A stretch of DNA of 43,504 nucleotides from an uncultured Bacteroidales bacterium (GCA_947164955.1 CAMUYT010000005.1:1-43504); one strand, 5' to 3'. Shown: positions 12,353 through 16,244, counted from the stretch's first letter. The notes: generated by a model not told the origin, from the sequence alone. A program made the numbers and translations.

Positions 12353-13300
12353 TCAATACTCCAGTCTGATTTCATCCACCCACAGCACATTGTCCAAAGC
12401 TCCGATGAAAGCGCCTTGACTACCAGAAGTTATCATCATAATGGCATGAGTGACAGGACAATTAGCCTCCGCCCAAGACTCTTCTTGAATAACCTTCCGC
12501 TTCCCTTTACTGTTGACGGCATACATCGACCTCTCACCCGTAATCAAATCCATATAAGGCTGGTAACCAGCCGACTTTCGCGCATCGCCATAAATGACCG
12601 GCACTCGGAAATCGTATACCCAGCCATCGGAGCTTTTTGTGATATGATAGACTGCAGTGCCGACCCGTTTGGCGTGAACGTTGCCTTTCTCATCCTCCCA
12701 ACGATATTGCAAAACAAATAGAATCTCAGCTGGGTCGTAGCCTTCAAACTCGGTAGTACGGAATGTGGTGCCCTTCACCAATTTTCCAGTATTTGGAATA
12801 AAAGATTTATAATTGAGCACCAATGCTTTAGGTTGTTTTGTAAAGGGCAAGCCCCAGTCCATGAATCCGTATGGGGCACTCACCCCCGTGATCGGTTCAA
12901 ACATTTTGCCCCAATAAATGGAACCAGCCGCCAACACTTTGATATTCACCAATCCAACCACTTTGCATGAAGCATATTGTGTGGCAAGTTTGGCGCATCG
13001 TCCCGTAGGGCCGCGGTCGGGCGTAACGTTGGTGCTGGTCTTCACGACACCCGCCACCTTAGCATAGGCATTAGAGGATGCCCATATGGTTTTTGAATAG
13101 TCATAAGCGAGATTGCCGCGCAGTGTATCAGTCGGGCCAACGACATATAAAGTCCTTTCGTTACCACCAAGAATCTGAGACTCGGTTATATAGCGGACGG
13201 CCCACTGCTCGAAATCGCCAAAAGGCACTTTCTCGTAGCGCTGGGAGAAAGCCGTCAAGGCGGACAGCACAACGAATATAGTCATTTGAATTTTCGCCAT
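12353..13300 (-). CDS. PCMD domain-containing secreted protein
   Basis: Signal peptide (FVVLSALTAFSQ); FGDFEQW, GRCAKLATQYA, PITGVSAPYGFMDWGLPFTKQPKALVLNYK typical of PCMD proteins; overlaps the upstream SDR gene. Confidence 0.75.
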   Translation of the reverse strand: MAKIQMTIFVVLSALTAFSQRYEKVPFGDFEQWAVRYITESQILGGNERTLYVVGPTDTLRGNLAYDYSKTIWASSNAYAKVAGVVKTSTNVTPDRGPTGRCAKLATQYASCKVVGLVNIKVLAAGSIYWGKMFEPITGVSAPYGFMDWGLPFTKQPKALVLNYKSFIPNTGKLVKGTTFRTTEFEGYDPAEILFVLQYRWEDEKGNVHAKRVGTAVYHITKSSDGWVYDFRVPVIYGDARKSAGYQPYMDLITGERSMYAVNSKGKRKVIQEESWAEANCPVTHAIMMITSGSQGAFIGALDNVLWVDEIRLEY

Positions 13301-14094
13301 ATCCTATCAACTAATCCATGGGGTAAAATGGCAACCAGAGGAGGCAGATACACATTCATGAATCCCGGTTTCACAACACGTTTCTTACGCATCATGCCCT
13401 TCAAGGCCTTCCGTACCAACCATTGCGGTGTTCCAATCAGCCCAATTTTAATACCAGCACGCAATAGATTGGGTTTCAATTTATAAAGTGGTGTCGCAAT
13501 AGCTCCTGGACATACCGTAGTGACGCCGACGCCATAAGGCCGCATCTCGAAATAGAGCGATTTGCCGAAGCTTTTCAGGTAGGCTTTTGTGGCCGCATAA
13601 ATCGTGATGCCCGGACAAGGCAATTGGGCTGCCATCGATGACATATTAATAAGGTGTCCGTAACCGCGTCGTTTCATCTCCTCACCGAAAAGGATGCTCA
13701 TCCGCGTCGGGGCAAAGGTATGCAATCGCATCATCGTCAAGGCTTTGGCCTCATTTTCAGGTGTCAGTTCCTCAAAGAAAAACATGCCTGCATTGTTGAC
13801 GAGGATGTCGATTTGCAAATGTTCGTTTTGACAGTAGGCAAACAATTCATCAGCGGAACGATCCTGAGCCAAATCCTGAAAACGGGTTTTCACTTGAATA
13901 CCATCACGTTTTAGTGCTTCGGAGGCTTTCAGCAATTCATTTTCTTGATTGCTGACCAACAACAAGTTGCAGCCCATTACTGCCAGCTGTCGCGCATACT
14001 CCAAGCCCATGCCCGAGCTTCCGCCCGTGACGAGCACCCGTGGTTGATGTCCATGCGTCTCAATAAACCGTTGCATCCATTTCTTTCCGTTCAT
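13282..14094 (-). CDS. Short-chain dehydrogenase/reductase (possible hydroxysteroid dehydrogenase)
   Basis: VLVTGGSSGMGLEYARQL cofactor motif, ILVNNAGMF, INMSSMAAQLPCPGITIYAATKAYLKSFG (catalytic S-Y-K). Start at MNGKKW. Confidence 0.88.
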   Translation of the reverse strand: MNGKKWMQRFIETHGHQPRVLVTGGSSGMGLEYARQLAVMGCNLLLVSNQENELLKASEALKRDGIQVKTRFQDLAQDRSADELFAYCQNEHLQIDILVNNAGMFFFEELTPENEAKALTMMRLHTFAPTRMSILFGEEMKRRGYGHLINMSSMAAQLPCPGITIYAATKAYLKSFGKSLYFEMRPYGVGVTTVCPGAIATPLYKLKPNLLRAGIKIGLIGTPQWLVRKALKGMMRKKRVVKPGFMNVYLPPLVAILPHGLVDRIWRKFK

Positions 14095-15326
14095 CCGTTC
14101 CTTTCCGCTTTCTTGATTTCTTTTCTGATACTTTTTGGCAATTCTTCGTCTACGCAATGATGGCACTTCATCTCCAGCGTATACATACGCCCGATACAAT
14201 AGTTGGAGTGTTGGCATTCGCTTCGGGTGACTTCACCGCTATGCAATTTGTTGACAAAATCCGTGTCACGGATCAAGGCACGTGCCATCTGAAGGGCTAC
14301 AAAACCCGAGTCGAGCACCTCCTCCATCTTCTCTCGCGAGACCATGCCGCCCACATAAATCAGGGGAAGCTTCAGCGCAGCACGAAACTCCTTGGCGTCT
14401 TCCAAAAAATAGGCTTCGCTATAAGGCACGGTGGGAATCAGTTTGCGGCCAATCAAGGCAAGTATCGCCTTGAGCCACCAGAATTTCTTTGGATCCATGT
14501 AATAGCGCAAGGTCTTGAGCGGCATCGCACCTCGCATCACCTCCATCGGAGCCTTGCTGACAAAGCCTGCCGACAGCACAAGTGCATGAACACCAAGCTT
14601 TTCCAACTCTTTGGCCACGATAATGCAATCGTCGCGGTCCATGCCTCTGTTGAAGCCATCGTGCATGTTCATCTTGACCACAACGGCCATGTCGTTGCCT
14701 GCCGCACGCATCACTTCCTCGATGACGAGTTTCATGAAACGCATCCTATTGTCGAGGCAACCGCCAAACTCATCGTGGCGATGGTTGGTATAAGGCGACA
14801 GAAACTGGCTGATGAGATAACCGTGTCCAGCATGAATCTCGACACAATCGAAGCCCGCCTTGCGCGCCAAGGTGACAGCCTTTCCGAAGTCGAGAACCAA
14901 CTCATAGATTTCCGCTTTTCTCAGCTTCCTCACGAAGGTCGGCGAGTACATATTGAAGCCACCTGAAGCGCCCACAGGCTGGCAGCCACAGGTGGAGCGA
15001 TGGGTCATGTTGCCACAATGCCCCAATTGGATGGAAGCCTTGGCTCCGTAGGAATGAACCGAGTCGGTCAAGCGCTTCAAGTCGGGGACGATTTCCTCGC
15101 GCATCCACAGCTGGCCGTTGAACGACAGTCCCGACTGGCTGACGGCTGCATAGGCCACCGTTGTCATGCCAACACCACCCCGTGCCACCGCGGTATGGTA
15201 GCTGAACAGATCATCCGAGGGACGGTTTCCATAGGCCATATTCTCAAATGCAGCTGAGCGTATCACCCTATTTCGCAGCGTGATAGGTCCGATTTCGCAA
15301 GGTGTAAATATGATTGAGTTTTCCAT
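14091..15326 (-). CDS. NADH:flavin oxidoreductase, Old Yellow Enzyme family
   Basis: FTPCEIGPITLRNRVIRSAAFENMA, IQLGHCGN, CVEIHAGHGYLISQFLSPYTNHRHDEFGG, Cys-rich C-terminal region. Confidence 0.92.
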   Translation of the reverse strand: MENSIIFTPCEIGPITLRNRVIRSAAFENMAYGNRPSDDLFSYHTAVARGGVGMTTVAYAAVSQSGLSFNGQLWMREEIVPDLKRLTDSVHSYGAKASIQLGHCGNMTHRSTCGCQPVGASGGFNMYSPTFVRKLRKAEIYELVLDFGKAVTLARKAGFDCVEIHAGHGYLISQFLSPYTNHRHDEFGGCLDNRMRFMKLVIEEVMRAAGNDMAVVVKMNMHDGFNRGMDRDDCIIVAKELEKLGVHALVLSAGFVSKAPMEVMRGAMPLKTLRYYMDPKKFWWLKAILALIGRKLIPTVPYSEAYFLEDAKEFRAALKLPLIYVGGMVSREKMEEVLDSGFVALQMARALIRDTDFVNKLHSGEVTRSECQHSNYCIGRMYTLEMKCHHCVDEELPKSIRKEIKKAERNG

Positions 15327-15329
15327 AGA

Positions 15330-16097
15330 TCAATAAATAAAAGGAATGATTCTCTTGACTTTTTTCGTATCTAACTGATCGCCAAACTCTTCTTGATAGT
15401 GCTTGTAAATATGATCGGCACGCGGACCAAGGTTGGCAAATGTCCACAAGGCGAAGACCGCACCCGCCCACGACCAGGTGAGGATGGCGAAGCCGATCCA
15501 CTCAACGAATTCTCCAAAATAGTTGGCAGAAGTGACGTAACGGAATAAACCGTCCTTTGGCAAGTAATGTTTCGAGTCACCATCTTTCCTCAAGTTGCGG
15601 ATGATGTCGTCGCTTTGAATATTGATATACATCCCGATGATGAAAACCATAAAACCCGCAATAAAACGCGGATTCGTCAGCCAATCAGCGGGATAATAGT
15701 CGGCAGGCGAGATATAGAAAATCCAACCGCCCTGCATCAAAGCATTCAACACATTGAAAATCACGCCCATGAGAACGATGGAAAGCGGCATCACGCTATG
15801 ACCACGCATTCGAAACGGGAACACGAATGACCGCTGGATATAGTGCAACTCGAACAGGAACAAGAAAGCCAAACGGACCAAGTCGTCGCGCCGATCAGAA
15901 AAGAACCACAGCAACAGCATCGCGATGAAAACTGGCGCTTCCATCAGCACCCAACCCACTTTGTTGTTGACCGTCGGGCCCCATTTCGGATTATAGAACT
16001 TGCCATAGCCTGCATCGACGAAGAAGAGGCTCACGAAGACCACCACAGCCACCACCGCCATGACAATCAAAAAGACATTGAATTGTTGAATATCCAT
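15330..16097 (-). CDS. Steroid 5-alpha-reductase-like membrane enzyme
   Basis: HYIQRSFVFPFRMRG and NLRKDGDSKHYLPKDGLFRYVTSANYFGEFVEWIGFAI...RIIPFIY, the hallmark C-terminal half of the 3-oxo-5-alpha-steroid 4-dehydrogenase family. Start at MDIQQF. Confidence 0.9.
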   Translation of the reverse strand: MDIQQFNVFLIVMAVVAVVVFVSLFFVDAGYGKFYNPKWGPTVNNKVGWVLMEAPVFIAMLLLWFFSDRRDDLVRLAFLFLFELHYIQRSFVFPFRMRGHSVMPLSIVLMGVIFNVLNALMQGGWIFYISPADYYPADWLTNPRFIAGFMVFIIGMYINIQSDDIIRNLRKDGDSKHYLPKDGLFRYVTSANYFGEFVEWIGFAILTWSWAGAVFALWTFANLGPRADHIYKHYQEEFGDQLDTKKVKRIIPFIY

Positions 16098-16244
16098 TGC
16101 TTTGAAAATGAATTTCAAAAATAGGGAAAAAACGTTTGCAAGCACACATTTTTCAACCAAAAGGCTTAAAAATTATCCGTATCGACGTCCTTAAGTACCT
16201 CACAAACGGGAAGAAATGTGTATTTTTGCGGCAAAATCAGAACT

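What the first reader, a model, noticed from the sequence alone, without database searches (positions are those of the whole stretch)
13282..16116. Compact putative steroid/bile-acid operon: 5-alpha-reductase-like + Old Yellow Enzyme + SDR
Seen: three minus-strand genes are packed with a 3-nt gap (15330/15326) and a 4-nt overlap (14094/14091) behind one TATTTTTG box (16116-16123). The first protein carries NLRKDGDSKHYLPKDGLFRYVTSANYFGEFVEWIGFAI...RIIPFIY, very like the C-terminal half of vertebrate SRD5A1 as I recall it. Known: gut Bacteroidales clusters pairing 5-alpha-reductase, an OYE-type 5-beta-reductase and a 3-beta-HSDH have been reported for isoallolithocholic-acid formation. Inference: this locus interconverts 3-oxo-delta4 steroids or bile acids, or an unknown sterol/isoprenoid substrate.
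Basis: partly seen in the sequence, partly recalled or inferred. Interest (0 to 1): 0.8.

Follow-up and report, generated by a model that had tools for sequence, protein, structure and literature searches.

The report
Gut steroid-reductase operon, forestomach variant
A gut bacterium, probably from a ruminant-associated lineage, carries a compact set of genes that very likely reshapes steroid molecules; close versions are already known from human gut bacteria that remodel bile acids, but here the set differs in several parts and its relatives live mostly ahead of where bile enters the gut.

Summary
In detail: the three genes, the 3-nt gap, the 4-nt ATGA overlap and the TATTTTTG box are as described, and the box is conserved in close relatives. 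The proteins are a steroid 5-alpha-reductase homologue (PF02544; best solved relatives PbSRD5A and human SRD5A2), a single-domain Old Yellow Enzyme and a short-chain dehydrogenase. The same order recurs across Bacteroidales, including Parabacteroides, Odoribacter and Barnesiella, so this belongs to the reported 5AR/5BR/HSDH bile-acid cluster kind, not to a new system. In 296 genomes, all 35 with the gut-type 5AR also carry this OYE.

Four refinements. (1) All 141 Bacteroidota 5ARs examined have Met where the published "QEY" signature has Gln. (2) Two non-orthologous SDR families occupy this locus; the window has type A, Parabacteroides and Bacteroides clusters type B, so "3-beta-HSDH" cannot be transferred by homology. 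(3) The OYE lacks the BaiCD-type second domain and has altered Fe-S-like ligands. (4) A fourth, PCMD-domain gene overlaps the SDR by 19 nt and in this genus occurs only in 5AR-positive genomes. Named close relatives come mostly from the ruminant forestomach or abomasum, upstream of bile, so bile acids are not the obvious substrate. Activity is untested.

The parts
16116..16123 (-). TATTTTTG, Bacteroidota -7 promoter element of the operon
   Evidence: 11 in window vs 2.5 expected; the same box 26-28 nt before the 5AR start in most close relatives
15330..16097 (-). 5AR: steroid 5-alpha-reductase homologue (PF02544), 255 aa
   Evidence: catalytic E and Y and NADPH residues conserved, Q of QEY replaced by M
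14091..15326 (-). OYE: single-domain FMN ene-reductase (PF00724), 411 aa, the '5BR' of the known cluster
   Evidence: H165/H168/Y170 and C371/C377/C388 invariant; AlphaFold pLDDT 92, nearest folds long Fe-S OYEs
13282..14094 (-). SDR type A: short-chain dehydrogenase/reductase, 270 aa, complete TGxxxGxG / Ser / YxxxK
   Evidence: motifs in relatives; window sequence; type A clade in tree
12353..13300 (-). PCMD-domain protein with a signal-peptide-like N-terminus, 315 aa; start overlaps SDR by 19 nt
   Evidence: (PF13201 E=3.8e-20); the signal peptide is read by eye, no predictor was run
12266..12273 (-). second TATTTTTG box, before the DUF5606 gene; suggests that the 4-gene unit ends with PCMD
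   Evidence: inference

Best explanation
This is a Bacteroidales steroid A-ring reduction operon of the known 5AR/5BR/HSDH kind. Proposed mechanism: the FMN enzyme (OYE) interconverts 3-oxo-5-beta steroids and the 3-oxo-delta4 enone; the membrane 5AR reduces the delta4 bond with NADPH to the flat 5-alpha product; the SDR carries out a hydroxyl/ketone step on the steroid, probably at C3. The net result would be reduction of an enone, or flipping of the A/B ring junction from 5-beta to 5-alpha. Shown here: gene identity, operon structure, conservation, and presence of most catalytic residues. Inferred: direction, substrate and stereochemistry of each step. The PCMD protein is an accessory of unknown role. 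In this forestomach-type lineage the natural substrate is more likely a plant or host sterol/steroid enone than a bile acid.
For: PF02544 and solved steroid reductases are the best matches of the 5AR. Equivalents of E57, Y91, N160, D164, R171, E197, R227 and Y235 are invariant in 141 of 141 Bacteroidota 5ARs, N193 in 140. The OYE co-occurs with the gut-type 5AR in 35 of 35 genomes; only 5 further genomes of 296 have it, 4 of them with the second 5AR clade. OYE-family genes lie near 5AR in at least 114 of 140 loci and SDRs in 103. Named carriers include Parabacteroides massiliensis, Bacteroides xylanisolvens, Odoribacter sp., Barnesiella sp. An22 and Phocaeicola massiliensis. Disruption of 5AR in P. 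merdae prevented formation of alloLCA derivatives, and its 5AR is clustered with a predicted 3-beta-HSDH and an NADH:flavin oxidoreductase (PMC10382948).
Against: No activity was measured. Gln56 of the signature is Met, and Q56A/L abolishes human SRD5A2 activity (PMC7815742). H231 is Ile. The SDR is not the Parabacteroides type. P. merdae itself was not among the loci fetched, so the link to the tested strain goes through congeners. The OYE is far below the BaiCD cut-off.
Confidence: 0.65

Rival explanations
1. It works on bile acids exactly as in human gut strains: 3-oxo-LCA to 3-oxo-delta4-LCA to 3-oxo-alloLCA to isoalloLCA.
For: Same 5AR and OYE families and order as clusters in genera tested for isoalloLCA (PMC10382948). 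Some relatives in the wider clade are hindgut bacteria (roe deer colon, horse faeces).
Against: Named relatives with 80-85% identity to the window's 5AR come from goat, yak and water buffalo abomasum, sheep reticulum, a RUG (rumen) genome and one of unstated source. A strong bile-salt-hydrolase match occurs in only 1 of 36 5AR-positive genus members and in 4 of 25 negatives (p=0.15, not significant). A type-B SDR was not found in this genome (MAG 73% complete).
Confidence: 0.2
2. The 5AR reduces an endogenous or other lipid (polyprenol, enoyl lipid, isoprenoid) rather than a steroid.
For: The wider superfamily includes polyprenol and enoyl-CoA reductases (own knowledge; one search shows the latter as a weak match); the Gln-to-Met change could reshape the pocket. 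A second, environmental 5AR clade lacks an adjacent OYE.
Against: Nearest solved sequences are steroid 5-alpha-reductases (188 and 140 bits); a very-long-chain enoyl-CoA reductase is far behind (41 bits). Patchy presence (36 of 61 in the genus) argues against an essential endogenous step. SRD5A3 sequences could not be compared.
Confidence: 0.1
3. A general enone detoxification cassette for plant or dietary electrophiles, with steroids only incidental.
For: OYEs are broad ene-reductases and the forestomach is rich in plant compounds (general knowledge).
Against: The tight 5AR-OYE pairing (35 of 35) and the steroid-reductase-type 5AR suggest a defined substrate class.
Confidence: 0.05

Closest known systems
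Bacteroidota 5AR / 5BR / 3-beta-HSDH gene cluster for isoallolithocholic acid (Parabacteroides merdae, Odoribacter laneus, Bacteroides dorei; as reviewed in PMC10382948, PMC11271093)
   Same: 5AR directly followed by a NADH:flavin-oxidoreductase-type OYE and an SDR; 58-60% 5AR and 61-62% OYE identity to Parabacteroides loci L121-L123.
   Different: SDR of type A instead of type B; PCMD gene coupled where some relatives have a second SDR; lineage mainly from ruminant foregut samples; substrate unknown.
PbSRD5A (PDB 7c83) and human SRD5A2 (7bw1)
   Same: Alignable along nearly the whole length, catalytic E and Y, most NADPH ligands.
   Different: Met for Gln in the QEY signature, Ile for H231.
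BaiCD/BaiH and 2,4-dienoyl-CoA reductase-type long OYEs (1ps9, 6qkg)
   Same: FMN barrel with His/His/Tyr; best structural matches, over nearly all of the model.
   Different: No C-terminal FAD/NAD domain; C-x5-C-x10-C plus a near-invariant His instead of the four-Cys Fe-S motif (the four-Cys motif is from own knowledge).
PCMD proteins of Bacteroides (PDB 3hbz, 3s30, 4het, 4jrl)
   Same: All-beta fold; the only significant structural matches of the PCMD model.
   Different: Distant (13-21% identity); their function is unknown.

Membership tests
Steroid 5-alpha-reductase (PF02544 / SRD5A) | Profile match above curated cut-off | tested here: met
   152 bits vs 22.6
Steroid 5-alpha-reductase (PF02544 / SRD5A) | Catalytic Glu and Tyr (E57, Y91) | tested here: met
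   Invariant in 141 sequences
Steroid 5-alpha-reductase (PF02544 / SRD5A) | Gln of the QEY signature (Q56) | tested here: not met
   Met in the window and in 141 of 141 Bacteroidota 5ARs; hence filed as the Bacteroidota 5AR branch of PF02544, not as a QEY-type SRD5A
Steroid 5-alpha-reductase (PF02544 / SRD5A) | NADPH ligands N160, D164, R171, N193, E197, R227, H231, Y235 | tested here: inconclusive
   All present except H231, which is Ile
Steroid 5-alpha-reductase (PF02544 / SRD5A) | Reduces 3-oxo-delta4 steroids | not testable with these tools
   Needs enzyme assay
Bacteroidota 5AR/5BR/3-beta-HSDH cluster | 5AR directly followed by the cluster's OYE | tested here: met
Bacteroidota 5AR/5BR/3-beta-HSDH cluster | SDR orthologous to that of the Parabacteroides/Bacteroides clusters | tested here: not met
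   Type A vs type B, separated by long, fully supported branches; about 21-24% identity in partial alignments. So: same 5AR-OYE core, different third enzyme
Bacteroidota 5AR/5BR/3-beta-HSDH cluster | Makes isoallo bile acids | not testable with these tools
   Needs assay
BaiCD bile acid oxidoreductase (NF041087) | Score above equivalog cut-off and two-domain length (about 640 aa) | tested here: not met
   185 vs 825 bits, 411 aa
Old Yellow Enzyme (PF00724) | Profile match and active-site His/His/Tyr | tested here: met
   192 bits vs 27; H165, H168, Y170 invariant and aligned with YqjM; their role is from own knowledge
Classical SDR (PF00106) | TGxxxGxG, NNAG, Ser and YxxxK | tested here: met
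   (139 bits vs 26.6), window sequence, relatives

The most novel reading that the evidence does not exclude
A forestomach Bacteroidales lineage uses a MEY-type 5-alpha-reductase, a truncated OYE with an atypical Fe-S-like site, a type-A SDR and a secreted PCMD protein to hydrogenate plant or host sterols before bile is met, so the known 'bile-acid' cluster would be one branch of a broader steroid-hydrogenating system with an unrecognised exported component.
Probability: 0.3. Interest if true: 0.65.

Novelty: new member of a known kind. Interest (0 to 1): 0.4.

Why it matters
It extends the gut steroid/bile-acid reductase cluster to bacteria of the ruminant foregut, where bile acids are not expected, and so separates the enzyme family from bile as its presumed substrate. 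It also shows that the published QEY catalytic signature is not universal (Met in 141 of 141 Bacteroidota homologues), that two non-orthologous SDR families share this locus so that automatic '3-beta-HSDH' labels are unsafe, and it points to a PCMD protein as a testable accessory.

Tried and rejected
Rejected: an essential endogenous lipid enzyme (patchy in the genus). Rejected: calling the OYE BaiCD. Rejected: a strict PCMD-5AR dependence outside the genus; in the order-wide sample the same PCMD type also occurs in 5AR-negative genomes, so it is an associated but separable gene. SRD5A3 (polyprenol reductase) could not be compared because no eukaryotic sequence collection was at hand.

Full report
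OBSERVATION. On the minus strand lie a 5AR gene (16097-15330), an Old Yellow Enzyme gene (15326-14091) and an SDR gene (14094-13282), with a 3-nt gap and a 4-nt ATGA overlap. The TATTTTTG box is one of 11 in the window against 2.5 expected; in most close relatives a TAnnTTTG box lies 26-28 nt before the 5AR start codon, so it is very probably the promoter. A second box at 12273-12266 precedes the next gene (DUF5606), which suggests a four-gene unit (inference).

WHAT THE PROTEINS ARE. The first protein matches PF02544 (E=1.3e-44); the best solved relatives are PbSRD5A (7c83, E=1.4e-54) and human SRD5A2 (7bw1, E=1.1e-39), while a very-long-chain enoyl-CoA reductase trails at E=1.2e-9. The second is a 411-aa FMN ene-reductase (PF00724). 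It scores 185 bits on the BaiCD model against a cut-off of 825; it lacks that enzyme's second domain. The third is a complete classical SDR.

THE CLUSTER IS A KNOWN KIND. In 296 sampled Bacteroidales genomes, 35 carry a gut-type 5AR and all 35 carry this OYE family; only 5 more genomes have the OYE, 4 of which have a second, 34-43% identical 5AR clade. In 140 fetched loci the OYE family is near 5AR in at least 114 and an SDR in 103. Named carriers include Parabacteroides massiliensis, Bacteroides xylanisolvens XB1A, Odoribacter sp., Barnesiella sp. An22 and Phocaeicola massiliensis. This is the arrangement described for isoallolithocholic acid formation, where 5AR disruption in P. merdae prevented alloLCA derivatives (PMC10382948; also PMC11271093, and PMC12697870). 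P. merdae itself was not among the fetched loci.

DIFFERENCE 1: THE ACTIVE SITE. [quoted passage not shown] In 141 of 141 Bacteroidota sequences aligned here, including those of Parabacteroides and Bacteroides, the Gln is Met; Glu and Tyr are invariant, and so are the NADPH ligands apart from one N193 exception and the loss of H231 in most of the gut clade. Since a Parabacteroides species is genetically shown to need its 5AR for alloLCA formation, Met is probably compatible with activity (inference, through congeners).

DIFFERENCE 2: THE SDR. A tree of SDRs from these loci splits into two fully supported families: type A (about 260-280 aa, the window's) and type B (about 270-290 aa). Among 130 loci outside the environmental set: A only 45, B only 28, A then B 27, B then A 1, two A 2, none 27. 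The Parabacteroides, human-type Bacteroides and Phocaeicola loci have B only. In one congener (G262, L080) a type-B gene occupies the slot where the window has PCMD. No type-B gene was found elsewhere in the window's genome (assembly 73% complete). The 3-beta-HSDH label therefore cannot be carried over. An operon with both types would supply both C3 steps of a 5-beta to 5-alpha inversion; that is my inference.

DIFFERENCE 3: THE OYE. Its AlphaFold model is confident (pLDDT 92). The best structural matches by E-value include the long Fe-S OYEs 2-naphthoyl-CoA reductase and E. coli 2,4-dienoyl-CoA reductase, over about 410-425 columns with query TM-score 0.77-0.79, slightly ahead of short OYEs at about 0.73. 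H165, H168 and Y170 are invariant, and so are C371, C377 and C388, with H373 nearly so. This resembles an Fe-S site with one Cys replaced by His, on a protein without the FAD domain. Whether a cluster binds is unknown.

DIFFERENCE 4: PCMD. In the window's genus, 24 of 36 5AR-positive genomes have a PCMD gene and 0 of 25 5AR-negative ones do (Fisher p=2e-8, not corrected for relatedness). Elsewhere PCMD lies beside 5AR in other arrangements: upstream on the same strand in Paludibacteraceae, upstream divergent in Barnesiella, downstream convergent in one locus. But the same PCMD type also occurs in 5AR-negative genomes of other families. The model's fold matches only Bacteroides 'putative glycoside hydrolase' structures of unknown function.

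ECOLOGY. Named relatives with 80-85% 5AR identity come from goat, yak and water buffalo abomasum, sheep reticulum, a RUG genome (rumen, by its naming, own knowledge) and one of unstated source. Bile is not normally present there (general knowledge). Bile-salt hydrolase was not detected in the window's genome, and strong matches occur in 1 of 36 5AR-positive against 4 of 25 5AR-negative congeners, which is not significant. This weakens, but does not exclude, bile acids as substrate. The window's own host is not known to me.

LIMITS. No enzyme activity was tested. Loci were chosen by similarity and are related to each other. Counts in the co-occurrence tables use score thresholds set after looking at the gap between clades. 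Neighbour counts come from a simple ORF caller that sometimes picked the wrong strand, so they are lower bounds.

VERDICT. Ordinary in kind, with informative differences: a new member of the known Bacteroidota 5AR/5BR/HSDH family whose substrate, third enzyme and fourth gene deserve testing.

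Noticed in passing
window 12353-13300 and loci L134, L143, L147, L151, L154, L160, L166: PCMD-domain proteins recur beside 5AR in several different arrangements across Bacteroidales families.
   Followed up: partly
L080 (G262), about 2800-3600 nt after the 5AR start: In one congener a type-B SDR occupies the slot that holds PCMD in the window.
   Followed up: yes
L112-L114, L116-L118, L120 (distant 5AR clade): The second, 37-43% identical 5AR clade lacks an adjacent OYE but usually has a conserved gene of about 330 aa with an NAD-epimerase-like start (cluster c18) directly upstream on the same strand.
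   Followed up: no
window 16218-17429 and 17426-18103: A divergently transcribed glycosyltransferase and a zinc peptidase (PF04298) sit across the promoter region; a TATTTTTG box at 16221-16228 suggests that the glycosyltransferase starts at ATG 16245, not GTG 16218.
   Followed up: partly
window 18171-18638: Small lipoprotein-like gene found near 5AR in 13 of the fetched loci; only a sub-cut-off Pfam match, function unknown.
   Followed up: no
window 18660-20393, 31702-34725, 37867-39885: Three large proteins with type IX secretion C-terminal sorting domains (PF18962).
   Followed up: no
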